From Deroplatys truncata (taxonomy: Eukaryota; Arthropoda; Insecta; Mantodea; Mantidae), in the NCBI GenBank assembly GCA_030765065.1, contig CM060980.1, forward strand, positions 59,628,364 through 59,692,363: a stretch of 64,000 nt of DNA. Direction: 5' to 3'. The number at the start of each line of letters is the position of its first letter. The first letter of the stretch is position 1. This document shows, piece by piece, positions 2,445 through 60,302 of this stretch. Position numbers and translations under genes: made by a program. The notes under the pieces are model-generated. The model worked only from the letters and a program-made list of their open reading frames with translations. It was not told the DNA's origin and made no database searches.

Positions 2445-2860
2445 AAGTTTCGTCGCGCGCACGCGTGTGTGTTTGAACAGCTCAACCATGAAATCTCTGA
2501 TGAATTTAACTTGGCATCTAGGTTTAGTATCTTCCAAGAAAATCCCCGTTTATATGGAAAGCTTTAGTTTGTATTTATTTTCTCAAAAATGACCCTAAGA
2601 TTTTGATTAAGGTGATATACTACCAATAAATTGCATCTATTGAATTGTTGTCAATAACCTGCAAAATCCTCTTCATTCCTAATGGATTGTATTTAAGTGA
2701 TAAATCATATTAAGAGAAAGATAGAAACTTTCTGCAGGAAAAACGTAACCCCTTAAAACGCACAATTTAACTAATTTTTTGTCGCATTAATTATTTACGA
2801 AACATTGGTTGCTGTTCGTATGATTTTTCGAATAGATAATCATGCACTTTTTAAAGTTCG
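2445..2860 (-). repeat. Family H element, degenerate central part
   Basis: Recognisable family H blocks occur in order: the GTGTGTGTTTGAACAGC block, the cttccaagaaaatcccc block, tctcaaaaatgac, and gattttgattaa. Both ends are missing or too diverged to place. This may be the left part of an old copy whose remainder lies at 4016-4680. Confidence 0.6.
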
Positions 2861-3068
2861 AAGCGCGCAATTTTTACTTTTTCTACTTTTTTTTCGAGTG
2901 GAGGAGAAAATGATTTAATCACTGCCTCATCCCCGATGGGAGTCGGGACTGAGAGTGTGGGACTCACCAATAATCGGCATACCGACTAAAAACTCCTCCA
3001 CCGGATTGAAAGGAAAAGGTTTGCTGCGTACTGCTTAAAGCACCCGCGCATTCCAAGGTGATGGGTCC

Positions 3069-4005
3069 ACTACGTATAGTAAGTAGGGGAAGTATTGTAT
3101 TCCACCCAAAAATTCGATACCGAGATTTCACCGGAAATATATGTTTTGAGACCCCCTGAATCCAAAAAAAGCATTTTTGGAAACATGTCCGTGTGTATGT
3201 CTGTGAACAGCATAACTCAGAAACGAACAGTCGGATAAACACCAAACTTGGTATTTAGTTCAGTATCTTCCAGAGATGCGACACGAAGGTTTTCAAGAAA
3301 ATCCCCCACCCCAGATTACCCTTTACATGGAAATTTTTCGAAAATTTTATTTTTCTCAAAAATGGCTCTAACGATTTTGATTAAAATATCATATGTTTAA
3401 GATATTTTCATGACAAATAACATGTGTATCTTGAATTTTCTGGGAATGTCTCCAAAAGTATTCTTCATTGTGAATGACTTTTGCATAGCTGGTAAACCAT
3501 AAGAGATAGACAAAATTTTACTACACAAAAAATGTAGATCGCGTTAAAATACACAATTTATATCATATACATTTTTTGGTGAGTGAACTATTTTCGAGAT
3601 AGTGCTTGTTATTCCCTTAAATTTTTCAATACTTATTTTCTCAAATGAGAATTTGTTTTCATTTTTTTTGTCTTGGATGTGCAAAGAGTATTAATCTGTG
3701 GCAAAGAGAATAGTGCTGCACCTAGCAACCAGCTATTAAGAGATATGTCTATGCTTAAAGGCTGCTGTATTTCTATATTGCCCTTGCAAATACAAAACAA
3801 GGGGAACATAGTAGCCTTAAGCGATAGTCAAATATTTTTAGAACTGGTCGCTATGTGTAAAATGTAATTCTCTTTGCATGTATAAAGATCGTTTCTGCAA
3901 ATGTTTATCTCGATTAATATGAAATAAATGGAGAATAAGAGTTTGTAAAAATAGTTTGTACAAGAGTAGAGAAAGTCATGTGAGTGTAACACATTAGATT
4001 TTTTT
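3069..4005 (-). repeat. Family H element, nearly complete
   Basis: Starts with the 3' hairpin segment (ctacgtatagtaagtag) but lacks the outermost actttct. It runs to the 5' end, gtagagaaagtcatgtgagtg, then acacattag and a T-run at about 4005. The internal microsatellite is reduced to a short gtgtgtatgtctgtg. Sequence at 2880-3068 just outside is unrelated. Confidence 0.85.
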
Positions 4006-4126
4006 GTTTATTTCTTTCCTTCTCGCCATGCCATGCAAAGAGTATGGAATTTCAAAGATATAATATAGCGACCCTCTTTTGAAGATTTAGCTGTTACCCC
4101 TGCCTCCTGTATCTCCCTTGTACCTG

Positions 4127-4535
4127 TAAATAAGTACATTCATTCTTTCATTCATTATCTGTTTACCCTCCACTTATGTAGGACTTACACCCCCCAGGAC
4201 TTACAGGCGGGTGCCTGGGGTCAGAGGCCCGTCGAGGAGCAGACACTCATGGATCAGACAGAGCATCCAGGATGGGGGATCAGCCCGATGCCTGGTATGG
4301 GATGAAGGAAGTAGATGAAACGAAATGTAGGTGAAATGGATGAAAGGAAAGGGGATGATGGAGCAGTCGGTGGAATGAATGGCGGGGGAAACCGGAGAAC
4401 CCGGAGAAAACCCCCCAGACGCCGCTTCGTCCACCACAAATCCCACATGCAGGTCCCTGGGATTGAACCCGGGCCGCCTCGGTGGAAGGCGAGCGGTCTA
4501 ACCACTCGGCCACGGCGCCGTCTAAATAAGTACAT
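4127..4535. repeat. Target-site duplication around S1 SINE copy 1
   Basis: TAAATAAGTACAT occurs at 4127-4139 and again at 4523-4535, exactly bracketing the SINE. A perfect 13-bp direct repeat is the signature of LINE-mediated retroposition. Confidence 0.9.
4140..4522 (-). repeat. S1 SINE (tRNA-Ser/Leu-like head), copy 1
   Basis: Read on the minus strand, the 5' end is GGCGCCGTGGCCGAGTGGTT, with an A box (TGGCCGAGTGGTTAGA) of the Ser/Leu-tRNA class. A B box, GGTTCAATCCC, lies in the CCCGGGTTCAATCCCAGGG context. A non-tRNA body of about 280 bp follows and then a tail of short ATGAA-type repeats. RNA polymerase III would use the internal A and B boxes; no own protein is expected, and LINE machinery mobilises such units. 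ORFs through this block are by-products of its high GC content. Confidence 0.9.
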
Positions 4536-4680
4536 AATGAAACAATTTCTGCAAATATACATCTGAATTTGCATGTAGTGGACAGAAGAATAAAATTTTA
4601 TAAAACTAAGGTGGAAATATACAAAACAAACAATAGCGAATGGAGGAAATCATGTGAATGTAACATACCAGATATTTGTA

Positions 4681-5224
4681 CTCTGAATGTAACCAGGTTG
4701 AGGGAATTTTCATTTGAATACTCACTGTGTGTTATAAAAATGAGCTATATGAGATTAAAATGGTTATGAGCCTACATAAAAGAGAAAACGGTGTTGCATT
4801 TTGTAGTGAGAAAATAAAAAGTGTAAAATGTTGAGGCAAATGTGGAAATTTTACCTTAGAAATCCTTGCGTTTCGAAACCTTGAAAGAAGAAAGAGCCTG
4901 CGTGCGTACTCCTCTTTGTATCCCTATGATTCCAGCACCAAGCTTGCGCGGTTCCCTCACTAGGGTGCAGCACTTACTTGAGCTGTTTCTTGCTACTCCA
5001 CAGCTGTCTTCGACGAGAGGAGTGATCACTTTTTAATGCGTAACTTCCATAAGTACGAATCACTGTAAAAACCTCTATTTATAATTAATTAATAGCAGAA
5101 TATTTTCTCAATATTTATTTCGTCCTGTTGGTATAATTTGCACTATTCACAAGCTGTAACGGTGTATGCTGCTTACAAGTGGTTTCAATATTAAAAGTGT
5201 TTTAGTACTAATAAAAACAATAAA
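4681..5224. other. No recognised feature
   Basis: Mostly A+T-rich. A GC-richer patch at 4890-5000 shows no ORF, tRNA box or match to other repeats in the window. Confidence 0.3.
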
Positions 5225-5480
5225 AGACTACTTATGTGTTACTTTCATACGACTTTTTCCATCCACTATCGTTTCTTTTTATATTCTTTATTGAGGGTTG
5301 AGCTATTTCAATTCATTTGGGCATGATCAGCGTCGAGCCGTGGCTCTGCTTCTTATACAGCTTCTACAAATTATTCTTACGAAAGCTTATTTTTCTAATT
5401 CATTATTAATAGAGATGAACTTTGCAGAAATAGTTTCATTGCACATTTCGCCAGATAGAGGAAATCATATCCATAATCAT
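5225..5480 (+). repeat. Family H (subfamily B) 5' part
   Basis: Opens with a diverged atgtgttactttcatacgac and ccatccactatcgttt. After a short unrelated piece (about 5285-5365) it continues with acaaattattcttacgaaag, agatgaactttgcagaaata and cacatttcg. The remainder appears at 6018-6490, beyond a cluster of SINE sequences. Confidence 0.6.
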
Positions 5481-6017: not shown

Positions 6018-6490
6018 AAATCGATAATCAGATGTTTAATGGCGTGTTATCTTGAAGTTTCATGTTCTTTCGCAAGAAACAAGCGAACAATGACAGCATT
6101 TCAAAAAATGACAAAGTATTGAAAAATTCAAACCAATATATGTTGGAAATGGCTGATGCCAGAAAAGAAGTTGAGATAAATTGTGTGTTTTAAAGATATC
6201 TAAATTTGTTATGTGACGTGTTTTTGTAATAAAAATTATACAAAATTTCTGTATATGAGAAGGGCTTCACGGGCCATTCCCAGAATATTAAAAGTTCATA
6301 TTTTATTTGCCAGTAAATATCTTATCTACGATATGGTATTTTAATAAAAGTTGTCACATCCACTTTTGATAAAATAAGAAATTTTGAGAAACGTTCTACG
6401 TAAACAGTAGTTTACAGTGAGGGATTTTTAAAGATCTTCGTGCCGCATCTTTGAAAATACTAAACTTAAAATACTGAGTTTAATATAAAA
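6018..6490 (+). repeat. Family H (subfamily B), continuation
   Basis: Family H blocks in the right order for the remainder of the 5225-5480 copy: aatcagatgttta, aattgtgtgttttaaaga, ttcccagaatatt, ttcgtgccgcatcttt. It stops before the CA-rich block. Confidence 0.65.
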
Positions 6491-6509: not shown

Positions 6510-6790
6510 ACACAGGCTATTCATATAAAATTGAATATTTACATTTTATCTAATTTGTACTCTTAGAGATGTGGAATTTTAATAAAAATGTTAAAGCAAT
6601 TTTTAAGAAAATCTAAAACAAAGAAAATATTTCTATTTTGAAATATAAAACATAATGTTGAAAATCTTCGTGTTGTATATTTGAAAGATTCTGAATTTAG
6701 TAGCGAGTTTGGTATTTATCCGACATTTCGTTTTAGAGTTGTGCTGTTCACACACCACATATGAACGCACTCACACTCATACTCACGCGC

Positions 6791-6852
<62 letters not shown>

Positions 6853-6962
6853 CTTTTCCACACACTTGCTCTTTGTATTCATGGATTTCCGTGAAATCTG
6901 ATATCGAATATTTGGGTGGAATACAATACTTCATTTATTTGTATTCATAAATAGTAGAGCAA
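6510..6962 (+). repeat. Family H 3' portion with a long CA tract
   Basis: Contains gtttggtatttatccgac, gttgtgctgttcacac, the CA microsatellite, and the 3' signature tcgaatatttgggtggaatac, ending near aatagtagagcaag. It partly duplicates blocks already present at 6018-6490, so it is a separate copy. Confidence 0.75.
6796..6851. repeat. (CA)n microsatellite
   Basis: About 28 uninterrupted CA/AC units inside a family H element, at the position where all family members carry a CA/CAGA-rich tract. It is the longest expansion of that tract in the window. Confidence 0.95.
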
Positions 6963-7103
6963 GTGATAAGTATTTTGTATACATTGCTTGTAAAGGACCT
7001 ATGAAGCAATTGGTAACTGTTAAAATAAAATAGTGTTATTATTAGAGATAAACAAAATATGTAGAAAAATTTGCAAAATTACATTTTATGTAAAATATGA
7101 ACA

Positions 7104-7957
7104 TATGAAGCAAAACTCTCATGTGATACATTCACCTGACTTTCTCAACCCCTATCGTTTATTAGTGTGTATGCAAATTAGTTTTACTAAACCTTATTTT
7201 TATATCTACTTCATTTTAATCCAAATAAACCTTTGCAGAAATAGCTACATTACACATTTCCTTATAGATACAAGGGAACAGTAGTAGTCAGATATTTAAG
7301 AACTGGACGCTCTACGCTGGCATTAAAATTCCATACTGTTTCAATAGAATCGCGAGGAACACCTGAATGTTGACAGGACTTTAAAAGAATGGCTAAGTAT
7401 TGAATGATTCGTACCATTAATAAGGGCTATCTCAAAAATGGCTGATGTCACCAAAGAGCTTGTTTGAAATAAATTGTGTGTTTTAAAGAGATCTACATTT
7501 TGGTATGTTTTGGTCTATCGTTTAACGTTTGCCAGTTATACAAGATTATACAAAATTCCTTCGGAATGAAGTGGATTTTACAGGCTATTCCCAGAAAATT
7601 CAAGATATATATTTTATTCGCAATGTGAATATCTTTAATATAATGTATTTTAATAACCAAAAAATGTAAAAAAAATGTGAAAAATGATCCATGTAATAGT
7701 TAGTTTGGGCAGGGGAATTTTCGTGAAAATTTTGTGTCGCGTATTTTGGAAATACTGAACTTAAATTCCAAGTTTAGTGTTGATCTTACTTCATTTTTAA
7801 GCTATGGTGTTCACAGACACATATACACACGGACATTTTTTTAAAATTGCTTTTCTTTAGTACTTAAGAGCCTCAAAGCACTTCCGGTGAAATTTGATAT
7901 CGAATTTTTGGGTGAATGCAATACTTTAACTAACTACTAGGTACGTGGTAAGAGAGT
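7104..7957 (+). repeat. Family H (subfamily B), nearly complete
   Basis: The 5' end reads catgtgatacattcacctgac then tttctcaacccctatcgttt. The 3' end reads tttgggtgaatgcaatac, then a ctaactactaggtacgtggt hairpin and aagagagtaag. The different 3' hairpin and the 5' ccctatcgtttattagtg distinguish subfamily B from subfamily A (tctactcttgtacaaac). Confidence 0.8.
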
Positions 7958-8512
7958 AAGAATTCAAAAAACATTATGAAATATACATTTTAAAGCCGAA
8001 ATATCTTACACTTTAAGGTTCACTGCAGTAGTTTAAAAACTAGGCTTTGTAGATTTTGTCCTTATTTAATAGTAAAATATCAAATTAAATATAACAAACT
8101 ACGCGGAGCTTATGGATTTTAATATTTCTGACATTTTTAAGCTTACAGAAAAGGAAAACAATTTACAGGTTAGTTTTCAAGAATAGGGGGCGTTTAATTT
8201 CTCCTCAACTGTAACTGACTTACTGTAAAGGGTTGTGCGGATTTTTTCACAAGCGTTTCCTCGAAAGAGTGGCTTAGGTTTTTACCAACAGCCGAATAGA
8301 ATCGGTTCTTTGCTAGCAGAATTATTTTAAAAGAAAAAACTCCAAAATATTATAAGGCATGAAATTTTTGTCACGCGCATTGGGCTATAAAAATGTATAA
8401 TTCATTACAATATGCAAAAAATAAATGATCTTGTAATGATATAAGGCATGGTTTAGTATGTGAAAATTCATATTTTGCTTTTCTGTAGATATTATTAAAA
8501 ATCAGTTTTTAC
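7958..8512. other. No recognised feature
   Basis: A+T-rich sequence between two family H elements. No ORF or repeat identified. Confidence 0.3.
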
Positions 8513-9228
8513 GTTCTCTATCACGTATATAAGGTATTGCATTCCACCCATTTCGGTACCTAAATTTCATCGGTAATACAGTTCTGAGGCATTCTGAATA
8601 AAAAAAGCATTTTTAGAAAAAATGTATATGTGTATGTGATGTATGTCTGTGAAGAATATAGCTCAAAATGAAAATTAGGCTAAATATCAAACTTGATATA
8701 AGTTTGATATCTTCTAAAGATGGGACATGAAGATTTCCAACACAATCCCTCACCCCAAACTACCCTTTATATGGAACATTTTTTGAAAGTTTTCATTTTC
8801 TCAAAAATGGCTGTTAAAATTTTTATTAACGATTTTGTATAATCTTGTGTAACTACATTAAGCTACAGACGAAAACGTACTACATAAAAATGTAGATATC
8901 TTTAAAACACTCAATTTATTTCAAATAACTGTAGCGCCAGCCATTTCCGAGATATCTGTTATTAATGATTCAAATAGTACATAACGTTGCCATTCTTTTA
9001 AATTCCTTTTGATTTTCAGTTGTTTCCTTGCGGTTGAATGGGTACAGTATGAATTTTAGGTCCAGTTCTATAACATTTGACTATCGCGGTTCGCTTTTAT
9101 CTGTAACGAAATGTGTAACGTAGAGCTATTCCTTCAAAGGTTTATCTGACTCAAAATGAGTAGTTTGCGCTTCCACTAGTAAACTATGGAGGGTAGAGAA
9201 AGTCACGTGAATGTAACACATCAGCTTT
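8513..9228 (-). repeat. Family H element
   Basis: Begins with a decayed 3' hairpin (tctctatcacgtatataagg) then tattgcattccaccc. It ends gagggtagagaaagtcacgt, gaatgtaacacatcag and a T-run. The central part is shortened. Confidence 0.8.
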
Positions 9229-10117
9229 TTTGCTGTGCAAGGACCGTGGACGAAGATCCCTCTTTCACGTCGCGGACGCGCGCGATCACCTGCGGTGGAC
9301 CTCCATGCTTACTTCGCTGCACCTATTAATATTCAATTTTATCTATCTCCGTTCCGGGAGCGAGAGCAAGACCAACTCCAGCTAATGCATTGCTAGTCGC
9401 TTCTAACCTGACGTTAAGCAGTACATAGCACGTCACTGCCTTTTGTCATCCTAGGCAATGGATGGCACAAGATTACATTATATGAGCTGTCGTTGTTGTT
9501 TTATTATTAATTTCTTTTTTTTTAATTCCTAAAAGCAACTGCTCGGACACGCCACTAATTTAAATTAACAACATTCATGCAGTAGCAGACCTCTCTTGTT
9601 TTTCATAAGTCTGGCAGGTTACGTATCCCCCCCCCGCCCGTGTTCCTACGGCTCCGTTCTGAAAATGGGTGTAATGTAATGGGGTACCACGGGAACGATT
9701 GCAGTAATGAAGAGCAACTGCTCCTAGGTGCTGTTAATAATAATTAATCCTAATAAACAGTAACATGAAAGACGTTGCTGCCAATTTACTTTCATAAGGA
9801 GGGATGCAACATTAGATTAGTACAGAAAAAGCATGTGGAGATTTCTAATTGTAAAAAGCGAAACAGAGTTCAAATATTTATACCGAAGAAATATGTGATA
9901 AAAGGTTACCTTTGTATAATTCTCATCCGTGCATATAATGCTTAACATTAAAATAGTCTGTATTTTAACAGGAATGGTTAAAAGTTATCTTTTTATGAAG
10001 TTAGTCATCATTAGAGCTCGAATTTATATGAGATATGTGTATTATCTTTTTATGTATTTAAAGGTATGAGAGGCAGAGAAAGAGGGAGGGAGAGGCAGAC
10101 AGACAGAGAGAGCAGCA
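9229..10117. other. Unassigned region, partly GC-rich
   Basis: 9240-9450 is GC-richer than its surroundings and contains cgcggacgcgcgcgatc. A C-run occurs at about 9628-9638. A purine-rich patch at about 10075-10115 (ggcagacagacagagagag) is low complexity. No ORF or splice signals stand out. Confidence 0.3.
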
Positions 10118-11445
10118 TAATTAAAAAAGTCTTGTGTTACATTCACATGACTTTCTATATCCACTATTGCCATTTTATATAACATTTACAAACTACCTTT
10201 GCAAAAGCTTATCCTTATATCTACTTCAAGTTGATTGAGGTAAACGTTTGCATCATTGGTTTCGTTATACAATTTATTACAGATACAAAGCAATAGGGAC
10301 AATCAAATGTTTAAAAACTGGGCAGTCTTTTTACGACATTGTGAGAAATAAGTGAATAGCGATGGCACCTTACAACATGGCAAACATATTGAAAACACAT
10401 CATATCGGGCTGATGTTACAGAAAAATTATTTTAAATAAATTGCGTGCTTATAAGAGATCTATATTTATGTACAGTAAGTTTCTGTTTAGCGGCGCCGTG
10501 GCCGAGTGGTTAGACCGCTCGCCTCTCACCGAGGCGGCCCGGGTTTAATCCCAGGGACCCGCATGTGGGATTTGTGGTGGACAAAGCGGCGTCTGGGCGG
10601 GTTTTCTCCGGGTTCTCCGGTTTCCCCCGCCATTCATATCACCAACTGCTCTAACATCACCTTTCCTTTCATCCATTTTATCATCATTTCGTTTCATCTA
10701 CTTCCTTCCTCCCATACCAGGCATCGGGCTGATCTGATATTCTGTCTGATCCATGAGCGTCTGCACCTCGACGGGCTTCTGACCCCAGGCACCCGCCTGT
10801 AAGTCCTGGGGGTGTAATAGGAGGTATAAACAGAAAGGAAGAAGGTTTATGTTTATCTCTTATGGATTAACCGTTATACAAGATGATACAAAATTATTTT
10901 CGAATTAAGAGGGCCTCACAGGTTCTCCCAAGAAAATTTAAGATGTACGTTTTGTTTGCCACGTAAATATGTGGTATTTTAATGAAACTCGTTAGAGCTG
11001 TTTTAGTGGGAATAAAAGAATATATAGAGATTTCTTAAGCGAAGTTTGGGATGGCGGTATTTTATTGAAAATTTTTAATGGCATTCTTGGAAGATACAAT
11101 ACAATATACAAAGTTTGGTATTTACCAGGTATGCGATATTCAGATTATTCTGACGTTTACACGTCATAAAATGTTTTATCATATATAGGGTCAACAATCT
11201 CTTTTATTGCTGCCATTATATTTATTTTTATTTTATGAGAAACTATGAGTTCAAATAGACCAATTTTATTTTAGTCACAAATAAATAGACCTGTACGTTT
11301 CGTTTTTGAGTTATACCGCTCACAGGCACAGGCGTACATGCTCGCGCGTGCGCAGACCATTTCAAAATACGCTTTGTATTTTGGCCTCAAAATATGTATT
11401 AACGGTGAAATCTCGATATAGATTTATGGATGAAATAAGTAGTAG
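10118..11445 (+). repeat. Family H (subfamily B), split by an S1 SINE
   Basis: The 5' part, 10118-10489, starts aaaaaagtcttgtgttacat. The rest resumes at about 10843 with gtttatgtttatctcttatg and runs to a diverged 3' end near gaaataagtagtagg. An extra segment of about 140 bp at 11160-11300 has no counterpart in other copies. The SINE at 10490-10842 is inserted in the gtctatctcttatgg block. Confidence 0.75.
10490..10842 (+). repeat. S1 SINE, copy 2
   Basis: Same head as copy 1 (GCGGCGCCGTGGCCGAGTGG), here on the plus strand, with a B box GGTTTAATCCC carrying one change. It ends GTCCTGGGGGTGTAATAGG plus a short A-rich tail. Imperfect flanking duplications aagtttctgttta (10477-10489) and aggtttatgttta (10843-10855) agree at 11 of 13 bases, so the insertion is not recent. 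Confidence 0.9.
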
Positions 11446-11535
11446 GCTTTTGTAATAATAATTTGTAGAAGAGATAAAAATAAAGGATAGTGGGTAGAGA
11501 AAGACGACATATGTATGTAACGCATAAGAAATACT
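11446..11535 (-). repeat. Family H 5' end fragment
   Basis: aaaggatagtgggtagagaa followed by agacgacatatgtatgtaac is the 5' end of a minus-strand family H copy, joined directly to the 3' end of the plus-strand copy before it. Confidence 0.55.
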
Positions 11536-14995: not shown

Positions 14996-15033
<38 letters not shown>

Positions 15034-15175
15034 ATAGACGGACAAGTTTCCAAACATGCTTTATTTGCATTCAGGTGCCTGAAAACATGTATTTCCGGTG
15101 AAATCTTGGTATCGAATTTTTGGGTGGAAGTCAATACTTTCTCTACCTCTATGTATGTGGTAGAGTAAGTAAAAA
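13655..15175 (+). repeat. Family H (subfamily B), host of a nested copy
   Basis: The 5' part is 13655-13740 (actttctctaccctctatcg then cttattagtgaggatac). The element resumes at about 14566 (atctactacgttttaaacc) and ends at a subfamily B 3' end near 15175 (tctatgtatgtggtagagta). The interruption is a complete opposite-strand family H copy. The microsatellite is an (AC)n run at 14999-15035. Confidence 0.85.
13741..14565 (-). repeat. Family H (subfamily A), nested insertion
   Basis: Complete from actttctctactacgtatag to agagtgtaacgcatcatatt. Flanking host sequence gctta-T-run-atctac is continuous in other subfamily B copies (for example 7190-7210), so both ends of this insertion are defined to within the T-run. 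Confidence 0.9.
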
Positions 15176-43290: not shown

Positions 43291-43314
43291 CAAGAAAGAA
43301 AAAAAAAACGAAAG

Positions 43315-44147: not shown

Positions 44148-44438
44148 AACGCAAAATTGGATTCTGAATATGTATACACGGTGTTCCCGAATCCCCGTCC
44201 ACTTCTTGAAGCAATATTTCGTTGTTGTGCATCGAGCGCCGGTAGTGTTGATTGAATACTGCAGTGGTTTCAAGGATAGTACAAAGTTTAATGTCACGAG
44301 TTGTAGCTCTATACATACCTACATGTATGGGTAAAGTACAGTATGTATTGCAGATATAAAACTCTACACACGGGAGCAGGATTCGAACTCGGTCGTATCT
44401 AATAGGTAATCTTCAAATGTTTCATTCATGTCGGACGA

Positions 44439-48782: not shown

Positions 48783-49490
48783 CATCTCTCTTGGTGATAT
48801 TTGTCAGTAAAGTGATTTCAGTATGGTGTCATAATATGCAACTACGTCAAATGCAAATACCTGATTCGTTACTTTGATGAAGGGGAAGTTTTCTCTACCC
48901 CCTTGGGACTTAAGGATGACATTGAAACAATGCACTTGATATTTTGAGAGATAGCTTTTTTTACTTCCTTTACTAGTTAGGTACTTATAGAAATTAGAGC
49001 AATCACTGTGTTCCACCCAAAAATTCAAACCGGGTTTTCACCGGAAATACACATTTTGCGACCTCCATGAATCCAAAAGAGGAATTTTTAGAAAAAAAGG
49101 TTCATTCTACGTGTGTTTCTGTGTATGACTGTGAACAGCATAACTCAGAAACGAAGAGTCAGTTAAATGCCAAACTTGGTATTTAAGTTCAGCATATTCC
49201 AAGGATGTGACTTCAAGCTTTTTGAGACAATCCTCTCAAACTAAACTAATGTACCTAATGTTTAAGATATTTTCATTAAAAAGGCAACGTATATCTTGAA
49301 TTTTCTTGGGAAGGGAGTTTTACAGAGCTAGTAAAGCGAAAGAGATAGACAACAGTCATTACTCAAAAAATGTGCACGATTTATGTCAAATATTTTTTTT
49401 AGTTAATCATTTTCGAAATATTTCTTAATATTGATTTGAATTTTCAAATACTTACACTTTCTTAAAGGTAAGACATTCTTTTTTACTTTC

Positions 49491-50192
49491 TCTATATATT
49501 CTTTCTGCATATATTAAATACATTTACATTACAAATAAAATGCATATCCCGAATTTTCTGGGAATAACCCTTGAAGTCCTCTTCATTCGGAAGAAATGTT
49601 GTATAATCTTGTATAACTGGTAAACGTTAAGCGAATAGACGGAAATGTAGATCTCTGTAAAACACACAAATTGTTTTAATTATGTTTTTGTAGCATAAGC
49701 CATTTGTGGTATGTCCATCATTAATAGTTCAAATTGTTCAATAATTTTGTCAATCTTTTCGAGTCCTTTCGATATTCAGTAATTCCTCGAATTGTACGCA
49801 AAGAGCATGCAATTTTAAGGCCAGTACATAGCGTCCAGTTCTTAAACATTTCACTATTACTATTCCCTTCATATCTGTAACAAAATGTGTAATGCAGCTA
49901 TTTCCAAAAGTTTTATCCCAACTAAAGTGAAGAAGATAGGGGAAAAAACTGTCGCAAGAATAATTTAATACCCACTAATAAGCACTAGAACAAAGGTGGC
50001 GAAAACGGCTTCCTTCCGCGAGTCACCAAATATGCGACACGCACTGCATCACTCAGCAGCATGTGAAAAACAAAGGGACGTGGCAGAGAGGGAACGTCGC
50101 CTACGAGTCAAAATGACTTTCGAATCGCGTTTTCGCCACCTCTGCGCTAGAGGATATAGAAGTCATGTGAAAATGTAACACATCGGATTTTT
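49491..50192 (-). repeat. Family H (subfamily B), nested insertion with a 3' deletion
   Basis: Starts actttctctatatattct, then jumps directly to tattaaatacatttacatt, so the CA block and most of the 3' third are deleted. The 5' end is intact (agaagtcatgtgaaaatgta, acacatcgg, T-run). It contains a small MITE at 49990-50146. Confidence 0.8.
49985..50151. mobile_element. 157-bp MITE with 5-bp target duplication
   Basis: Inverted ends ACAAAGGTGGCGAAAACG (49990) and CGTTTTCGCCACCTCTGCG (to 50146) share a perfect 14-bp core, AGGTGGCGAAAACG. They are flanked by CTAGA at 49985-49989 and 50147-50151. Removing the insert restores the family H text ataagca-ctagaggatatag, which lines up with ataagcgatagagggtagag in other copies. 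No coding capacity. Confidence 0.8.
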
Positions 50193-50427
50193 TTCTTTTG
50201 TTTTTTCTGTCGTCGTGTAAAGAGCATGGAATTTCAAAAGCATCAGATAGCGACACAGTTTAAAACTGACTATCGCTTTACCTATTATACTGTACAACGA
50301 AATATGTAGATGTGGACGGAAAGTCCATCTGTATTAACAAGAATTAACTAGAATAATAAGCTCATGTACAAATAGTTTATAGAAGTGTGAGTAGAAAAAA
50401 TTACTTTGTGCAACACATTAGTTTTTA

Positions 50428-51183
50428 CTTTCTCTACTACTTATAGTAAGTAGGGGAAGTATTGCATTCCAACCAAAAATTCGATACCGAGATTTCACGG
50501 GAAATATATGTTTTGATGCTCCCTGAATCCAAAAAAAGCATTTTTGGAAACATGTCCGTGTGTGTGAGTGTGTATGTATGTGTCTGTGAACAGCATAACT
50601 CAGAAATGAACAGTCGGATAAACACCAAACTTGATATTTAGGTTCAGTATCTTCCAGAGATGCGACACGAAGCTTTTCAAGAAAATCCCCCACCCCAGAT
50701 TACCCTTTATATGGAGCTTTCTCGAAAATTTTAATTTTCTCAAAAATGACTCTAACGATTTTGATTAAAAGATCATATATTTAAGATACTTTCATGACAA
50801 ATAAAATGTATATCTTGAATTTTCTGGGAATGTCTCCAGAAGTATTCTTCATTGTGAACGACTGGTAAACTGGTAAACCATAAGAGATAGACAAAATTTT
50901 ACTACACAAGAAATGTAGATTGCATTAAAATACACAATTTATTTTATATACTTTTTTTTTTGTTGAGTGAACCATTCTCGAGATATTGCTTAAATTTTCC
51001 AATACTACAGCTCTTAAAATATTTGACTATCGCTTAAAACCTTGCATCTACAAGATAATTAGCAATAAGAGTAACATCTCGATATCTCGATTAACATGAA
51101 GCATATGGAGAATAAGCGTTTGTAAAAATAGTTTGTTCAACAGTAGAGAAAGTCATGTGAGTGTAACACCTCAGTTTTTTTAA
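50428..51183 (-). repeat. Family H (subfamily A), tandem to the previous copy
   Basis: Begins actttctctactacttatag directly after the T-run that ends the preceding minus-strand copy. Ends agtagagaaagtcatgtgag, tgtaacacctcag and a T-run. A deletion removes about 70 bp near 50990-51010. Confidence 0.9.
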
Positions 51184-52502
51184 CATTAAGCTAGTTAGCA
51201 GTTTTAAAAACTGAATAACCGGTATAATATGTGATGTGACAACAGGTACTTTGTATGTCAATTATTAATTTTATCTTGTGTTATATATTTTCTCGTGAAC
51301 GCCCCATTAGTGTTTTCCCCAAATTTTCTCTAGTCTCAAAAAGGAAGAAACAAAACGATTAGGCAGCCCAGCGGCAACAAGCACTTCCAATTGTCCAGCA
51401 GCTCGTCGGCCGAGCTGTTCCTCTTCCTTTCTCTATCGCTCCCCCGTCCCTTATTCCTCTTTCTGCTCCTCATCCCTTTCTCTCCACATAACCACTATAC
51501 TAGTATCCCGCCAAAAAATGTAAATTGATGATTTCATTACGCAGAATAATTCGCTATGCGGATCACATATACCGGATAGAGAATACAGAAAAATAAAAAG
51601 CATACACAACACGGTGTTGACAGCCATACTTACCAACGCCAGAGAATGTGTTTTTCGTACCTTTAACCCTGTACTTAGTTTCACGTATGTGTGTGAGGGG
51701 TTAGAGCGGATCCTTGTGTGCTAGATAATGACTTAATTAATTTTGACGAATAGCTGTGCATGGTTGCTCACCAAGTAATGTGTAATGGGGGTTGGATTAT
51801 GAACCCTTGTCGTGGATGTATTCCTCTCTTTTCATGCAACCTCTCTACCTCCCCCTTACCACCCTCTTTCGGGCACCCCCATACCCACTTTTTTTCGTCT
51901 CGTTGCAGTAATAGGACAGTCGCATTAATGTCAAAGAAAAATGTGATTGGGGAAGAGGTGGGCACAGTGTGAATGTAATGCAACATACTACCTCACCCCA
52001 AACATCCTTTCCCTGAAAAAAAACATAACATCGCTGCAAACAAGGACAGAGTTCTGTGCTGAGGCTGTAGATGAGATATCTGATCTATTTTATTCTACTA
52101 CTTTGAGATTGATCTTGAACCCTATTGTTTATTCATGGATGCCCATTTGTTTCACAATTTTGGTTCGATTCATTTTAGCTTTTAGTATAGTAATCAGGGT
52201 TTAATTTGTAATATAAGGACCAAACTTCATTAATATTTTAAATTAGTAACAGATACAGCAATTGATTATTATATGTTTTACTGTTTTGAAAAATTGCTCC
52301 ACTCATACTACCATTTGATAACTCAGTTATTTAATACTATATTATTAAACTGTAGAGATACATTTTTAATTATCCTACTAGTTTGAGAGGAAATAAAAAT
52401 TAAATAGGAGACAGGAGTTTTTTGCTTAAAATTTAACAAATACGAATATTATTGTTCATTAACGTCACAACTAAGCATTAATAATACTTCATCTCATTCA
52501 TT
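51184..52502. other. Unassigned region
   Basis: A pyrimidine-rich stretch at 51405-51485, then mixed sequence. ORFs at 51451-51684 (-), 51760-51972 (+), 51768-51986 (-) and 51947-52204 (+) overlap each other and have no recognised motifs. Confidence 0.3.
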
Positions 52503-53873
52503 TTTACTTTCTTTAACACATACTTATTATAAGTAGAGGAAGTATTGAATTGTTCCCAAACATTCGCTGTCAAGATGCGTGTTTTGAGGTTCCTGAAACC
52601 CCACCCAAAGGCATTTTTAGGATGTGTGTCTGTCTTTCTGTATGTCTATGAACAGTATAACTCAAAAACGTCATATTTAAGTTCAGGGCCTTCCAAGGAA
52701 GATTCCAAAGAAAATATCCCACCTCTCTTTAATAAATACCCCACCCCATACTACCCTTTACGCGGAAAAGTTTTCGTTACTTCTGATTCTCTGAAAATTG
52801 GCTGTAACAATTATGGTTATAACAATATATTAAAGCTATTTACATCACAAAATCTATTATTTGAAATCTCTGGGAATAGCCTGCGAAGTTCTATTCATTC
52901 TGAATGGTTTTTGTATAATTTGTAAACCGTAAGAGATAGACAAACTTTACTGCACAATAAAATTCAGATCTTGTTAAAGCACACAATTTATGTAAAATGA
53001 AGTCTTTTGTAGCATTGGGCATTTTCGAGATGTTCTTTGTTTCAGCTCAAATTTTAAAATATTTTATGCCTTTCACAAGTCTAAATTTCTATACTTTTCT
53101 TTCTCTCGTTCCTTTCTTTTTCTTGTTCATGTTAAGAGAACAGAATTTCAAAGCCATCGAAGTGACCGGCTTTGAAAGCGCTTGAATGTCGCTTTAGCAT
53201 ATTGCTGGGGTGAAGGCCGAAAAGGTTACCAGAAAATGATTGATTTAGGTCACCCCAACAAGCACATGGGAGTGCAACTCGCTGGCAGCAAAAAGTCCGG
53301 GACCTTGCTGTGTAAATTTAAGAGGAAGGAATGGGATTTATATTACATTAAAAGATTACGTAACACACATTACCTCCGATTTAATCTCAAAAACGTTTGA
53401 CTTTTCTAATAGTTAACAAAGGAAGCAGGATGAAGGGAGATGCCACAGACAATAGACCGGCCAGACACGACTGGTTTCAACGTCCATTTACTCTCGAGTG
53501 ACGCTAACTTGCCCCCACCAACCGTGCCTAGCCAGAGCCAGACAGGGCTGACGTCATACAAGATAATTTCAAACAGATCTTTCCCTTTGGAGTGGTCCGC
53601 GCCAAAATGAAAGACCGTCAAACTGAAATATAACTAAAGAGCTCCAATAATGCTACGACTGGTAGCAACAATACAACACAACAGTTCGTCTGGTAATGAC
53701 AATAACATTAATATGCCTCAATATTGTATTCTTCTTAATACCTAGCGAAATGAGTAAATGGTAATGAAGGTTTATCTGTATTAAGAAGAAGTAGAAGAAC
53801 AAGTTTTGTAAGAATAGTTTGTAGAAGAGTGAGTAGAGACATTCATGTGAATGCAATAAATCAGATTTTTACT
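52503..53873 (-). repeat. Family H element split by an unrelated insert
   Basis: 52503-53203 contains the 3' end (actttctttaacacatactt with ataagtagaggaag) through to tgtcgctttagcatatt. 53714-53873 contains the rest (ctcaatattgtattcttctt to gacattcatgtgaatgcaat + aaatcag). The 510 bp between are not family H. Confidence 0.75.
53204..53713. other. Unidentified insert inside a family H element
   Basis: About 510 bp, GC-richer than its host. It has a plus-strand ORF of 72 codons at 53182-53400 that starts in the host and so is probably fortuitous. No terminal inverted repeats, tRNA boxes or clear target duplication were found. Confidence 0.5.
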
Positions 53874-54722
53874 TTCTCTATCGCGTACAGGTAGAGAAGG
53901 TATTGCATTCCACCCAAAAATTGGATATCGAGATTTCACCGGAAATACATGTTTTGTGGCCTCCTGAATCCAAAAATGGTATTTTTAGAAAAAGGTCCGT
54001 GTATGCGTGTCTGTGAACAACGAAAAGTCTAATAAACACTAAACTTGATAATTAGGTTCAGTGCTTCCAAAGATATGAGAATAAGATTTTAAAGAAAATC
54101 CACCCACCCCAAACTAACATTTACCTGGAAAAGTTAGATTTTTGCAAAAATAACTCCAACGATTTTGATTAATGTACCATATGTTTAAGATATTTTCATG
54201 ACAAATTGAATGTATATTTTGATTTTCTGGAAATGTCCTCAAAAGTCATCTTCATTTTGAAAATGACTTTTGCATAACTAATAAACCGTAAGAGATAGGC
54301 AAAATTTACTACACAAAAACTGTAGATCTTGTTAAAACACTCAATTTATATCCTATACACTTTTTTGTCGAGTGAACCATTTCCGAGATATTCCTTGTTA
54401 TTTGTTTGAATTTTCCAATTCTCATACTTTTCTCAAAGTATGTTATTTTTTCAAAGTATGTATTCGTTATTTTTTTCCTTTTTTTTAATGCCCTGGACAT
54501 AAAAAGATAATCAAATGCTACCCATAACAACCAGTTCTTAAAATATTTGGCCATCAGTAAAGCCTACTGTATTCCAAAACTCCCCTTACACCTACAAGAA
54601 AATTAGCACAATAAGATAATTTCTGCAAATGTTTATCTCGATTAAGAGGAAGTAGATGGGGGAATAAGCGATGGTAAAACTAGTTTGTACAAGAGTAGAT
54701 TAACTCCTCTGTTATTTTTTTG
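53874..54722 (-). repeat. Family H element, tandem to the previous copy
   Basis: actttctctatcgcgtacag starts immediately after the previous copy's aaatcag and T-run. The 5' end is diverged (gagtagattaactcctctg). Confidence 0.85.
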
Positions 54723-54829
54723 TGTTGTTACTAGCAAGGAAGTATACAAAATTTCATTGATTTACACTGAAAACCACATCGTATGGAACAATTTGAAAAT
54801 CACAAATTAAAACAAATGAAAGCCTGAGA

Positions 54830-55110
54830 AAAAAATCTGATTATTACGTTCAATTGACTTTCGCTACCCTGTATCACTTATTAGTGGATAAACAGATTAT
54901 TCTTAAGAAAGTTTATTTTCCTATCTACTTCATTTCAATCAAGATAAACCTTTCTGGAAATAGCTGCTTTACACATTTCGTTATAGATACAAAGGTAACA
55001 GCTATAGTCAAAGGTTTAAGAACTGGACGCTATGTACTGGCCCTAAAATTCACTGCTCTTTGCGGGCAACCGCGAGAAGCAACTGAATATCGAAAGGTCT
55101 TTTACAACGT
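54830..55110 (+). repeat. Family H (subfamily B), 5' third only
   Basis: aaatctgattattacgttca and actttcgctaccctgtatca start the element. It stops after gaagcaactgaatatcgaaa. The 148-codon ORF at 54854-55300 simply reads through this fragment into A+T-rich flank. Confidence 0.75.
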
Positions 55111-55983: not shown

Positions 55984-56856
55984 TTAAAAAAATCTGATGT
56001 GTTACACTCACATGACTTTCTCTACCCTTGTACAAACTATTTTTACAAACGCTTATTCTCCATATGCTTCATGTTAAACGAGATGTTAATCTTATTGCTA
56101 ATTTTCTTGTAGGTACAAGGGGAATATGGTAGACTTTAAGCGACAGTCAAATCTTTTAAGACCTGGTTGCTAAGTGGCGCATTCCATTCTCTTTGCATGT
56201 CCAGTACGTAAAAAAATGAATAACGAATTCCCATTTGAGAAAAAGTATTGGAAAATTTGAGGGAATAACAAGCAATATCTCGAAAATGGTTCACTCAAAA
56301 AAAAATGTATACGACATAAATTGTGTATTTTAACGCGATCTACATTTTTTGTGTAGTAAAATTTTGTCTATCTCTTATGGTTTACCAGTTAAGCAAAAGT
56401 CATTCATAATGAAGAATACTTTTGGAGACATTTCCAGAAAATTCGAGATATACATTTCATTTGTCATGAAAATATCTTAAACATATGATATTTTAATCAA
56501 AATCGTTAGAGCCATTTTTGAGAAAATTTAACATTTTCGAAAAATGTTCCATGTAAAGGATAATCTATGGTGGGGGGATTTTCTTGAAAACCTTCGTGTC
56601 TCATCTCTGGAAGATACTGAACCTAAATATCAACTTTGGTGTTTATCCGACTGTTCGTTTCTGAGTTATGCTGTTCACAGACAGACACACAGAGAGACAG
56701 ACAGACACACAGACACACACACGGACATGTTTCCAAAAATGCTTTTTTTTGGATTCAGGGGGTCTCAAAACATGTATTTCCGGTGAAGTCTCGGTATCGA
56801 ATTTTTGGGTGGAACAATACTTCCCCTACTTACTATACTTAGTAGAGAAAGTAAAA
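55984..56856 (+). repeat. Family H (subfamily A), complete
   Basis: Runs from an A-run and atctgatgtgttacactc to ttactatacttagtagagaa + agtaaaa. The CAGA/CA tract is at 56677-56723. Confidence 0.95.
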
Positions 56857-56911
56857 ATGCCTACCCATAGAAACCGCTATCCCTAGAGCGCAGAGGTAAG
56901 TCGACCCATTT

Positions 56912-57835
56912 TTAATTTCTCTACTACGTACTTACGGAAGTAGAGGAAGTATTATATTCTACTCAAAAATTCGATGTGAGATTTCACTGGAAATAGAGTT
57001 TTTGAGCCCTCCTGAGTCCGAACAAGGAATTTTTAGAAAAAGTCCGCGCGCGCGCGCGCGTGTGTGTCTATCTAAATCTGTGTGTGTGCGTGTTTGTGTG
57101 TCTTAGTATGCGTCTGTGAACGGCATAGCTCAGTAGCGAAACACTGGATAAACAGTTAAATTGTATTAAAGTTCAGTATCTTCCAAAGATGAACACGAAG
57201 ATTTTAAAAAATATTGCTAATTCCTTTACATGGAAAAATATTAAACATTTTGAATTCTTCAAAAATGGCTCCAGCCATTTTGGCTAAAATGCCATGTATT
57301 TAAGATATTTACATGATACATAAAATGCATATCTTGAAATTTCTACTATAGCCTCTGAAGTACTCTTCATTCCGGAGGAATTTTATATGATTTGTATAAC
57401 GGATCAACCATAACATATGCACAAAAACGTAGTGCATAAAAACTGTAGGCATCTTAAAGAACACAATTAATTTCAAATACATTTTTCTTTGGTATCAGCC
57501 ATATCCGAAATATCCGTTGTTATTGATTATAATTTTTCAGTGTTTCGTCATTTTTAAAATGCTGCCGCTATTCAGTTGTTTCTCGTGATGTCGTGGAAAG
57601 AGTGGTAATTTAAACGAAAGCGTATAGACATAAGAGTAGGGATATCGATTCTACTTTCTGCATCCCCTTGTGTCTACTACAACATGTGTAATGAGGGTAT
57701 TTCTGCAAAGGTTTATTTCGATTAACATAAAGTAGGTAAAAAAGCAAGCTTTCGTAGGAACAGTTTATAGTACCTATGTAAAAATAAACGATAGTGGGTA
57801 GAGAAGGTCATGCAAATGTAGCGGAAACTTTTTCT
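56912..57835 (-). repeat. Family H element
   Basis: Runs from atttctctactacgtactta with ggaagtagaggaagt to agtgggtagagaaggtcatg + caaatgtag. The microsatellite is (CG)n(TG)n at about 57045-57068, unlike the CA-only tracts of other copies. Confidence 0.85.
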
Positions 57836-58814
57836 TTAAATGCTTCATTAGCGCTCGTCGTGTAGGTCAAAGCGAGTGCTGGTGGTAGTGGCAAAATAAG
57901 AAAAGGAATGCCCTTAGTTGATGTAAAATACTGTAATTTGGAAAAATCATGAGTAAAGATTTACTTTTCAGATTAAGTAATATATTTTGTTTTATACTTC
58001 ATGAATAATATACGATTTAGAACTTAGATTCCAAGAACTCCAATGGTCCTGAAGATTGAGGTAAGTCATAAAGTATTAACAAAGAAAGTTCATGTAGAAA
58101 TTCCTTATGCACAGATATTGCTGTTAGACCTTTCCAGGTAAACAGAAGTTGGTTTATTCCATCTTTTGTCTTTTAAGCAAGCCCGTGGATTTTATTCTCA
58201 GCGCATGGAAATATGTCTCCCTTTACATTTCATCACTTAGTCATTATTCAGGGGAATAGCATAATTCTCTTCAGGAACTTGGGTTTCCGAAACCAAAGGC
58301 CACAAAGAACCAAAGAGAAACATCGCCCAGTTTTGTTTCCTCCATCTCCCTATTCTTTTTAGTATGTTTGTCACGTCTCATATGTTTCGACTTGTCCATC
58401 TCTCTACAGGGACATCATGGTTAGATAAACAACTGCGTCGTGATTAAGATATTATATTCCTTTAAAATAAGAGAAGGATCAGAAGAGGGTCTTTCTCGAA
58501 ATGCAAAGCTTGATAAGAACACAAATTTAAACTTTTTTTTTCAGCGCTTACAAGCATTTGATTACGTCGTGATCGAGATTCTTCAAGGCATGTGATGTTA
58601 AACTGCTTCTGAAAGAGTCTAGTAAAATTATAAATTAAATGATTTGAATTATAATATATCCTCTTAAACTGCTTCAATTATTTTACTAGTCTTGATGTTG
58701 TTAAACTTAAAACTCGAATCTATATATAATAAAATTATAATCCATAATTTCAGTTAGTTTCAGGTTTTGATAAATAAATGACACCATTATGTTTAGATAT
58801 CCTTAAGCCAAACT
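57836..58814. other. No recognised feature
   Basis: Mixed A+T-rich sequence; no supported ORF or repeat. Confidence 0.3.
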
Positions 58815-60302
58815 GTAGGTAGAGAAGGTATTGCATTCCTCCCAAAAATTCATATTGAGATTTCACCGGAAGTACATTTTTGAGGTTCCTTAAATAAAAA
58901 TCATTTTTTGAAAAAAGTCCGTGTGTGTGTGTGTGTGTGTGTGTGTGAACAGCATAACGCAGAAACGAAATGGCCGATGTATACCAAACTTACTGTTTGG
59001 GATTAGCATTTTCCAAAGATGCTACACGAAGATTTTCAAGAACCCCCCCCCCAAAAAAAACGTTTTGATTTCCTCAAAACTGTCTCTATCCATTTTATTT
59101 AAAATAATATATGTTTAAGATGATATGCATCACCAATAAAATGTATAATATGAATTTTCTGGGGTTAACATGTAAAGTTCTGTTCATTCGGAAGGAATTT
59201 TCTATAATTTTGTATAACTAGCAAAGTATAACATACAGGAAAAAACGTAGTACACAAATGTAGTATCCAATTTATTTCAGTTAACTTTCTGTGGCGATTC
59301 AGTTCCCTCTATCCCCCTTGTACCTTCAACGAAATGTATAACGAAATATTTCTGCAAACGTTTATCTATGGAGTAGGCGGTAAAATAGGCTTCCGTAGGA
59401 ATACTTTGAGGAACCCATATAAAAAATATATCTGATGTGATATATTCACACGAATTTCTCTACCCTCCATTGTTGATTAGTGGGTGGCTTATTTTTATAT
59501 CCACATCATTTTAATCCTAATATACTTTTGCAGAAATAGCTACATTACACATTTAGTTATAGATACAAAGGGAACAGAGATAGTCAAATGTTTAACAACT
59601 GGACGCTATACGCTGGCCTTAAAATTGCATACTTTTTTTAATGCAATCGCGAGAAACAACTGAATGTTGACAGAACTTTAAAACAATGGCTATGTATTGA
59701 ACAATTCGAACCATTAATAACGGATATCTCGGAAGTGACTGATGCCTCAAAGAGTTATTTGAAATAAATTGTGTGTTTGAAAGAGACCTACATTTCTTGT
59801 GTGGCACATTTTCGTCTAACACTTAACGTTTACCAGTTATACAAAATTATACAAAATTCCTTCCAAATGAAGAGGCTATTCCCGGAAAATTCAAGAAGTA
59901 CATTTTATTTGTCATGTAAATATCTTTAATATATGGTGTTTTAATCAAACTAGTTAGAGCCATTTTTTTAGAATATAATTTTTTTTCAAAATGTTTCACG
60001 TAAAAGGTAGTTTGGGGTCTTCGTGACGCATCTTTGGAAGATACTCAACTTAAATACCAAGTTTGGTGTTGATCAGACTTTTGGTTTTTGAGTTATACGG
60101 TTCACAGACACACACTCGAACTTTTAATAAAAATGCTTTTTGTATTCAGGGGGCCTCAAAACATGTATTTTCGGTGAAATCTCATTATCCATTTTTTTGG
60201 TGAAATTCAATACCTTCTCTAACTACTAGGTTCGTGATAGAGGAAGTAATAAACGATAGTAGGCAGAGAAAGTCATATGAACCTAACTTATCAGATTTAA
60301 AA
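58815..60302 (-). repeat. Family H element, host of a nested copy
   Basis: 58815-59426 runs from gtaggtagagaaggtattgc to aggaacccatataaaaa. 60250-60302 (aaacgatagtaggcagagaa, agtcatatgaacctaac) completes the 5' end. The same text is continuous at 57775-57820 in the neighbouring copy. (TG)n at 58919-58947; a C10A8 run at about 59043-59060. Confidence 0.85.
59427..60249 (+). repeat. Family H (subfamily B), nested insertion
   Basis: Runs from aaaaatatatctgatgtgat to aactactaggttcgtgatag + aggaagtaa. Complete, with a short CA tract (about 60108-60115). Confidence 0.9.

What the first reader, a model, noticed from the sequence alone, without database searches (positions are those of the whole stretch)
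2445..60302. One Helentron/HINE-like family makes up over a third of the window
About 32 copies or fragments share an A-run + TCTGATGTGTTACACT 5' end, a subterminal ACTTTCTCTAC motif repeated inverted at the 3' tip, a 3' hairpin 8-9 nt from the tip, an internal CA-rich tract and insertion at T/A runs. This architecture matches DINE-1/HINE non-autonomous Helentrons. The local density is extreme, and the termini may belong to an undescribed lineage.
Basis: partly seen in the sequence, partly recalled or inferred. Interest (0 to 1): 0.8.

Follow-up and report, generated by a model that had tools for sequence, protein, structure and literature searches.

The report
Helentron repeats flooding a mantis genome
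A short non-coding rolling-circle transposon fills over a third of this stretch and about a fifth of the sampled DNA of what appears to be a dead-leaf mantis genome, and a protein-coding element with the same ends, which could supply the copying enzyme, sits in the same genome.

Summary
In detail: one family covers 37.2% of the window (49 profile hits). The class is right: it is a HINE, a non-autonomous Helentron. The deciding evidence is a partner in the same genome. Of 12 long-frame Helentrons examined, 12 end in the same 3' tip, near-identical to the HINE's, and one (C10) shows both family tips between non-family flanks. The one coding region read in full (C1) encodes Rep, PIF1 helicase and a weakly matched C-terminal endonuclease.

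New here: tip anatomy (five T's at the 5' tip probably element-borne, insertion at the left edge of a T run), and stacked 5' ends: ten of 12 copies share an extra HINE 5' module, nine fully read ones 97.9-100% alike in sites with different left neighbours, so the stack moves as a unit. Such stacking was proposed in Fusarium (PMC5148889). Verdict: a new, very abundant member of a known kind.

The parts
2327..2879 (+). HINE fragment, model 45-631
   Evidence: nhmmer; strand given is the true 5'->3' direction (partner's coding direction)
3065..4005 (+). HINE copy, model 13-877; 5' tip lost
3782..3880 (-). short inverted stretch inside the 3065-4005 copy, model 646-745
4012..4679 (+). HINE 3' part, model 625-877, longer than its model stretch
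5223..5456 (-). HINE 3' part, model 736-877
6022..6482 (-). HINE fragment, model 201-710
6512..6969 (-). HINE 5' part, model 3-414
7110..7962 (-). HINE copy with both tips (B-type)
8506..8829 (+). HINE 5' part, model 3-344
8841..9231 (+). HINE 3' part, model 437-876, probably the same copy as 8506-8829
10124..10491 (-). HINE 3' part, model 465-876
10844..11128 (-). HINE fragment, model 190-478
11295..11436 (-). HINE fragment, model 47-189
11390..11531 (+). weak HINE match, model 746-872
   Evidence: 16.8 bits
11828..12667 (-). HINE copy with both tips
13679..13760 (-). weak HINE match, model 789-851
   Evidence: 15.2 bits
13738..14564 (+). HINE copy with both tips (5' pentamer TTATT)
14558..14866 (-). 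HINE fragment, model 454-808
14859..15175 (-). HINE 5' part, model 3-298
19099..20048 (+). HINE copy with both tips
19824..19928 (-). short inverted stretch inside the 19099-20048 copy, model 641-745
22559..23404 (+). HINE copy, model 8-877 (B-type)
24417..24984 (-). HINE fragment, model 69-607
24851..25723 (+). HINE copy with both tips
25734..25782 (-). HINE 5' tip, model 3-49
   Evidence: 15.4 bits
27911..28756 (+). HINE copy with both tips
35600..35879 (-). HINE 3' part, model 666-877
35721..35808 (+). short inverted stretch inside that copy, model 642-735
35887..36434 (-). HINE 5' part, model 3-566, same copy as 35600-35879
36897..37828 (-). HINE copy with both tips
38643..38757 (+). HINE 5' part, model 4-118, of a copy split by 38752-39666
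38752..39666 (-). HINE copy with both tips, inserted in the A run of another copy
39662..40404 (+). remainder, model 113-877, of the split copy 38643-38757
43311..44149 (-). HINE copy with both tips (B-type; 5' pentamer TTATT)
48958..49248 (+). HINE 5' part, model 3-277, of a copy split at its internal T run
49252..49484 (+). same split copy, model 347-633
49508..50194 (+). insert in that T run: shortened HINE, profile hit model 350-877; a 5' tip ACTTTCTCTA directly follows the T run at about 49484
50195..50425 (+). remainder, model 627-873, of the split copy
50422..51006 (+). HINE 5' part, model 3-595, directly after a 3' tip (tandem)
51008..51181 (+). HINE 3' part, model 686-876, of the same copy
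52501..53194 (+). HINE 5' part, model 3-713
53744..53870 (+). HINE 3' part, model 742-875
53866..54699 (+). HINE 5' part, model 3-842, directly after a 3' tip (tandem)
54829..55095 (-). HINE 3' part, model 617-877
55986..56857 (-). HINE copy with both tips
56909..57823 (+). HINE copy, model 3-863
58814..59299 (+). HINE fragment, model 26-546
59309..59408 (+). HINE fragment, model 723-830
59424..60252 (-). HINE copy with both tips (B-type)

Best explanation
The family is a HINE: a non-coding passenger of a rolling-circle Helentron, in a genome that matches Deroplatys truncata. SHOWN from sequence: the true 5'->3' order is TTTTT-ACTTTCTCTAC (5' subTIR, with an inverted repeat whose 5' arm lies inside it), then a GT/CA tract in the first quarter, a body with an internal T run at model position about 630, GTAGAGAAAGT (3' subTIR) and a short hairpin ATGTG..CACAT that ends 4 nt before the 3' tip ...CAGA. 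Insertions lie at the left edge of a T run, with no other change seen at the target. Helentrons of the same genome end in the same 3' tip; one of them, about 10.6 kb long, also begins with the HINE 5' tip. The coding region of one copy (C1) is intact and encodes a Herpes_teg_N-like domain, Rep, PIF1 helicase and a C-terminal endonuclease. INFERRED from the known biology of Helitrons and Helentrons: Rep nicks at the 5' tip, the helicase peels off one strand, copying ends at the 3' end, and the strand is joined into a nicked T run; the HINE borrows these proteins. SHOWN: ten of 12 autonomous copies carry the same extra HINE 5' module in front of their own 5' tip, and this two-tipped form sits in different sites. 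INFERRED: an autonomous copy landed in the T run of a HINE, and later rounds started at the outer HINE tip and ended at the inner 3' tip, so that the 5' end grows by stacking.
For: 3' tip: the same 35 nt in 12 of 12 autonomous copies (6, 6); 31 of 33 aligned nt match HINE consensus A. What follows the tip differs: no family hit next to it in C1, C10, a_C9 and d_C4, HINE position 629-632 of different HINE copies in C4, C5, C8, b_C13 and e_C3, other HINE positions in C13, c_C10 and f_C13. 5' tip: C10 begins with the HINE 5' tip, 91.9% over a 740-column alignment to consensus A, with no family hit in 2.5 kb before it or 1.5 kb after the 3' tip. Proteins of C1: PF14214 98.2 bits and PF05970 101.2, PF14529 28.1 against a cut-off of 27.4 and PF04843 40.6 against 25; H700, H702, Y881 and Y885 are invariant in an alignment of this protein and 10 relatives. 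Genome: 152 PF14214 matches (a lower bound; 150 of 291 candidates scored), 18 of those listed in uninterrupted frames over 2,100 aa; the 12 copies were picked by hand from these 18. Target: an unfilled unit of a 3,409-bp tandem repeat reads CATATTTTTAAAGG where the filled unit has CATATTTTT + element + TTTTTAAAGG. 74 left flanks: T at 84-99% in five positions and 27% at the sixth; left and right pentamers differ in 8 of 8 two-tipped copies whose left pentamer is not TTTTT. Stack: nine fully read m2 modules are 97.9-100% alike and a tenth (C1) is read in part; a_C9 has no family hit in 2.1 kb before and 0.7 kb after; c_C10 and f_C13 each split an inverted HINE. Abundance: 181,481 exact 16-mers against 7 for the pattern read backwards.
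Against: The endonuclease match is weak and was listed only when the C-terminal 252 residues were searched alone (not listed). No solved structure matched that C-terminus beyond chance. The 3' hairpin is short: consensus A folds no better than shuffles (62 of 200 at least as well) and neither does the autonomous tip (45 of 200). The 3' subTIR lies 22 nt from the tip, not the 38-60 nt given for mite HINEs. Only one copy (C10) shows single family tips with non-family flanks on both sides, and its coding interior was not fetched (frame length). The 5' end of the C1 copy was not reached. A 5-bp TTTTT duplication would also give T's on both sides; the 8 informative copies are imperfect and partly old, so mutation can explain some mismatches, and the 74 left flanks include modules related by descent. 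Module b.m1 is 97.0-98.0% like m2, about as close as some m2 copies are to each other. In samples plus window only 12 of 60 5' tips abut another family copy (a nested tip at about 49484 was missed by that count), no more than the family's share of the DNA, so self-targeting is not general. Transposition was not observed.
Confidence: 0.93

Rival explanations
1. A MITE of a DDE transposon: inverted repeats, cut-and-paste, target duplication.
For: An 11-bp inverted repeat near both ends; T's on both sides of insertions could be read as a duplication. Tc1 elements are abundant in this species (PMC12908712, section 6).
Against: The repeats are subterminal and unevenly placed, 5 and 22 nt from the tips; flanking pentamers differ in 8 of 8 informative copies; the coding elements that share the ends encode Rep and helicase.
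Confidence: 0.02
2. A canonical Helitron or a Helitron2 family rather than a Helentron.
For: Rep and PIF1 helicase occur in all three; asymmetric inverted repeats and palindromes at both ends recall the Helitron2 description quoted in PMC4067079 (passages). The endonuclease match is just above its cut-off.
Against: No 5' TC / 3' CTRR and no A|T insertion; an endonuclease match at the C-terminus, also annotated in relatives such as P0003 from Araneus.
Confidence: 0.04
3. The extra 5' modules arose by tandem duplication or gene conversion in one ancestral copy, not by nested insertion and use of the outer tip.
For: Nine m2 modules are 97.9-100% alike, so one ancestral event of any kind would do; b.m1 is 97.0-98.0% like m2.
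Against: The junction lies at the HINE's internal T run, an insertion site, and runs straight into a 5' tip; the predicted first step is seen in place, the partner between HINE 3-632 and HINE 629-877, in b_C13, C4, C5, C8 and e_C3. Either way the stack afterwards moved as a unit.
Confidence: 0.2
4. The abundance in the window is a local array, not part of a genome-wide burst.
For: The window (37%) is above the sample mean, and it holds tandem and nested copies.
Against: 14 of 16 samples hold the family, mean 19.5%; 181,481 exact 16-mers in the assembly.
Confidence: 0.02

Closest known systems
HINE / DINE-1 (INE-1), non-autonomous Helentrons of mites, Drosophila and Culex (PMC4067079; abstract and passages read)
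   Same: 5' subTIR next to the tip, inverted repeat with one arm inside it, microsatellite, 3' palindrome, T-rich target without modification, terminal T's counted as part of the element, copies outnumber the partner.
   Different: Own tip sequences; 3' subTIR 22 nt from the tip; mostly five T's at the 5' end with the longer T run on the right; about a fifth of the sampled DNA.
Helentron proteins, e.g. of Cacopsylla melanoneura (P0001) and Araneus ventricosus (P0003)
   Same: Rep, PIF1 helicase and DUF6570 domains; PF14529 endonuclease in the Araneus protein; 60% and 54% identity over the 501 residues searched.
   Different: An N-terminal Herpes_teg_N-like domain (annotated in other relatives, not in these two) and a repetitive charged stretch; HINE 5' modules stacked in front. 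Tips of those relatives were not examined.
FoHeli Helitrons of Fusarium oxysporum with multiple 5' termini (PMC5148889; passages read)
   Same: Several 5' termini with one 3' terminus, explained there by self-insertion and nicking at the leftmost 5' end.
   Different: There the duplicated 5' stretch is typically under 200 bp; here it is about 630 nt of the non-autonomous family, and ten of 12 examined copies share it.
Helitrons of Deroplatys truncata in Liu et al. 2025 (PMC12908712; abstract, section 6 and passages read)
   Same: Very probably the same assembly; a recent and an ancient Helitron burst are reported.
   Different: In the parts read no family, tips, partner or target site is described; the percentage is in a figure and supplement that I did not see.
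Helitron-rich grasshopper genomes (PMC7486953; abstract and passages read)
   Same: Large insect genomes with Helitrons at 7-20% of the repeatome.
   Different: Class totals from read clusters; here one family in an assembly, with its partner.

Membership tests
Helentron/HINE | Partner with the same ends encodes Rep and helicase fused to an AP-type endonuclease | tested here: met
   The coding region of one copy (C1) was read; the endonuclease is just above the Pfam cut-off (28.1 against 27.4) when the C-terminus is searched alone.
Helentron/HINE | Subterminal inverted repeats, the 5' one 2-4 nt from the tip, the 3' one 38-60 nt (mite HINEs) | tested here: met
   ACTTTCTCTAC directly after the T's at the 5' end and its complement 22 nt from the 3' tip. 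The 3' spacing differs.
Helentron/HINE | Inverted repeat with its 5' side nested in the 5' subTIR (DINE-1 type) | tested here: met
   5' ends of consensus A and B: 2 and 7 of 200 shuffles fold at least as well.
Helentron/HINE | Palindrome near the 3' end | tested here: inconclusive
   5-6-bp stem 4 nt from the tip in consensus A, consensus B and the autonomous tip; shuffles at least as stable: 62, 5 and 45 of 200.
Helentron/HINE | T-rich target without target site modification | tested here: met
   Paralogous empty site, nested cases and flank statistics. T runs leave some ambiguity.
Helentron/HINE | Rep protein inside the Helentron clade of a tree with named references | not tested
   No tree was built; homology search only.
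Canonical Helitron | 5' TC, 3' CTRR, insertion between A and T | tested here: not met
   Ends TTTTTACTTT...CACATCAGA, insertion at the edge of a T run.
Helitron2 | Rep/helicase without endonuclease | tested here: not met
   PF14529 match at the C-terminus, weak.
DDE MITE | Fixed target duplication | tested here: not met
   Flanking pentamers differ in 8 of 8 informative copies; a duplicated TTTTT cannot be excluded for the rest.

The most novel reading that the evidence does not exclude
The HINE is not only a parasite of its Helentron but its landing pad and donor of new 5' ends. Autonomous copies often lie inside a HINE (8 of 12 examined, five of these at the T run near position 630), later rounds start at the HINE's outer tip, and so the partner keeps exchanging its 5' end for that of the currently successful HINE. 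That would keep the ends of enzyme donor and passenger matched through a burst that made about a fifth of the sampled DNA of a 4.3-Gb genome.
Probability: 0.35. Interest if true: 0.65.

Novelty: new member of a known kind. Interest (0 to 1): 0.45.

Why it matters
About a fifth of the sampled DNA of a 4.3-Gb insect genome goes back to one non-coding rolling-circle family, and the partner with long intact frames is present beside it. That gives a rare system in which donor and passenger of a Helentron burst can be compared copy by copy. The recurrent nested insertions give empty sites inside known sequence, which help with the long-ambiguous question of what a Helentron does to a T-run target, and the shared stacked 5' ends show in an animal the outer-tip use that was proposed for Fusarium Helitrons.

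Tried and rejected
Rejected: DDE MITE, canonical Helitron, Helitron2 and a purely local array (see rivals). General self-targeting was considered and not upheld: 12 of 60 5' tips abut another copy, about the family's share. My note after said about 30 intact long frames; a recount of the listing gives 18 above 2,100 aa. A blastn of one copy against phage records found nothing, as expected. Rfam found nothing in the window at gathering thresholds, nor in the tandem-array loci L010 and L011. Window ORFs gave no Pfam family at E 0.001 or above a cut-off. A genome-wide count of a 5'-tip pattern and of the junction HINE T run + 5' tip could not be made: the search machine stayed busy. A Rep tree, structure predictions and a Repbase comparison were not made.

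Full report
The observation. The repeated motifs are real and far above chance. A profile of 15 window copies finds 49 stretches covering 37.2% of the window, none in the reversed sequence. Fourteen hits hold both tips. Two groups are visible, a closer A-type and a more diverged B-type; the 25 two-tipped copies of window and samples are 79-94% (median 89%) like the nearer consensus, and the closest pair is 95.3% alike.

Polarity. In Helentrons and DINE-1 (PMC4067079, passages) the 5' subTIR lies 2-4 nt from the tip, an inverted repeat has its 5' side inside that subTIR, and a palindrome lies near the 3' end. The 5' repeat folds better than all but 2 (A) and 7 (B) of 200 shuffles; the 3' hairpin is weak (62, 5 and 45 of 200 shuffles at least as stable for A, B and the autonomous tip). 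The partner's coding frame runs in the same direction, which settles the polarity.

Where it is. The window lies at C6:59628364-59692363 of a 4,289,915,091-bp assembly. A COX1 copy is 93% identical to its closest listed relatives, which I recall as mantises. The length of contig C4, 248,405,437, equals the scaffold N50 printed for Deroplatys truncata, whose assembly is 4,290,792,545 bp with 15+X chromosomes (PMC12908712). I take the genome to be that species. [quoted passage not shown]

How much. 181,481 exact matches to the 16-mer in the assembly, against 7 for the pattern read backwards. Sixteen 10-kb samples, spaced by hand over nine contigs and without the large contig C16, average 19.5% (SD 13.5; bootstrap 13.3-26.0%), with 37 5' tips and 27 3' tips in 160 kb; scaled up, 0.7-1.0 million tips of each kind. 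The profile comes from window copies, so diverged copies are undercounted. For scale, the passages of PMC4067079 give 6% and 6.6% for a bat and a butterfly, and the abstract of PMC7486953 gives Helitrons as 7-20% of grasshopper repeatomes.

The partner. PF14214 finds 152 matches in the assembly (150 of 291 candidates scored), 18 of the listed ones in uninterrupted frames over 2,100 aa. I took 12 of these 18. C1 was read through its coding region: a 2,324-codon frame with Rep, DUF6570 and PIF1 helicase, a Herpes_teg_N match at the N-terminus and a marginal Exo_endo_phos_2 match at the C-terminus; a sequence search of that C-terminus against solved structures gave only a chance match, while the helicase part matches PIF1 helicases and the Helraiser transposase. 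Relatives occur in psyllid, spider, hoverfly, whitefly and other animals, up to 60% identical over the 501 residues searched.

Shared ends. The 35 nt before ...CAGA are the same in 12 of 12 and match HINE consensus A at 31 of 33 aligned positions. C10 starts with the HINE 5' tip (91.9% to consensus A over 740 columns), has no family hit in 2.5 kb before it nor in 1.5 kb behind its 3' tip, and is about 10.6 kb long by its coordinates.

Target. In a 3,409-bp tandem repeat near the start of contig C1 the unit holds one HINE; a diverged unit lacks it and reads CATATTTTTAAAGG where the filled one reads CATATTTTT-element-TTTTTAAAGG. Over 74 left flanks T is confined to five positions; the sixth is background. 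Right T runs fall off slowly beyond five. TTTTT occurs 46 times, TTATT 8, ATTTT 7; some of these 74 are related by descent. Among 25 two-tipped copies, 8 have a left pentamer other than TTTTT and in none does it equal the right one. I read this as element-borne T's and insertion at the left edge of the T run; a 5-bp duplication with later mutation is not excluded.

Stacking. Directly in front of the partner's own tip (module m3), ten of 12 copies have the same HINE 5' module m2, model 3-630 (nine read in full, C1 in part). Full m2 modules are 97.9-100% alike, while the modules further out in C4, C5 and C8 are 95.3-96.5% like them; b.m1, at 97.0-98.0%, is not clearly separate. e_C3 has a different module (92.6-93.4% to m2) and C10 none. 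The left neighbours of m2 differ: non-family DNA (a_C9), inverted HINEs (c_C10, f_C13), a complete HINE in tandem (C13, d_C4), or the first 632-633 positions of a HINE (b_C13, C4, C5, C8). In the last four and in e_C3 the HINE continues at 629-632 behind the partner's 3' tip. So the partner does land in the HINE's T run, and the two-tipped product moves as a unit with the outer tip as its end. The window shows the same nesting among HINEs, at 49484 and at 38752-39666. Fusarium Helitrons with several 5' termini, and the same explanation, are in PMC5148889 (passages).

Verdict. A HINE family with its Helentron partner: a known kind, with unusual abundance, clear tips and well-documented 5' stacking. 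What is inferred and not shown is the biochemistry, current activity, and any advantage of stacking.

Noticed in passing
contig C1:about 20,000-123,000 of the assembly (loci L001-L012): Tandem array of a 3,409-bp unit, each unit read holding one complete HINE; diverged units nearer the contig start lack it. No (TTAGG)n was seen in the four stretches checked, and the first 5,000 bases read N.
   Followed up: partly
many contigs: Numerous COX1-like fragments in nuclear scaffolds (99 matches among 96 of 991 candidates scored), several in repeated groups on contig C16: many nuclear copies of mitochondrial DNA.
   Followed up: no
e.g. C1:38116489-38117034 and C4:128870265-128870813: A second group of Helitron Rep matches covers the whole Pfam model with higher scores (187-196 bits) and mostly a stop inside; possibly another Helitron lineage.
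   Followed up: no
window 20976-21497, minus strand: 173-codon frame that resembles a Tc1/mariner-type transposase remnant by eye (recalled); Pfam gives only sub-threshold helix-turn-helix matches.
   Followed up: partly
window 33553-33626, minus strand: tRNA-Val (CAC) predicted by ARAGORN; gene or tRNA-derived repeat not decided.
   Followed up: no
window 3782-3880, 19824-19928, 35721-35808: In three HINE copies the same model stretch (about 641-745) also matches on the opposite strand, so these copies hold an internal inverted repeat, a possible subfamily mark.
   Followed up: no
L029/L030, N-terminal part of the autonomous frame: Long run of charged repeats of about 21 residues (EYKESERKRNKEYMEQARED type) that differs in length between copies, judged by the frame lengths 2,261-2,543.
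   Followed up: no
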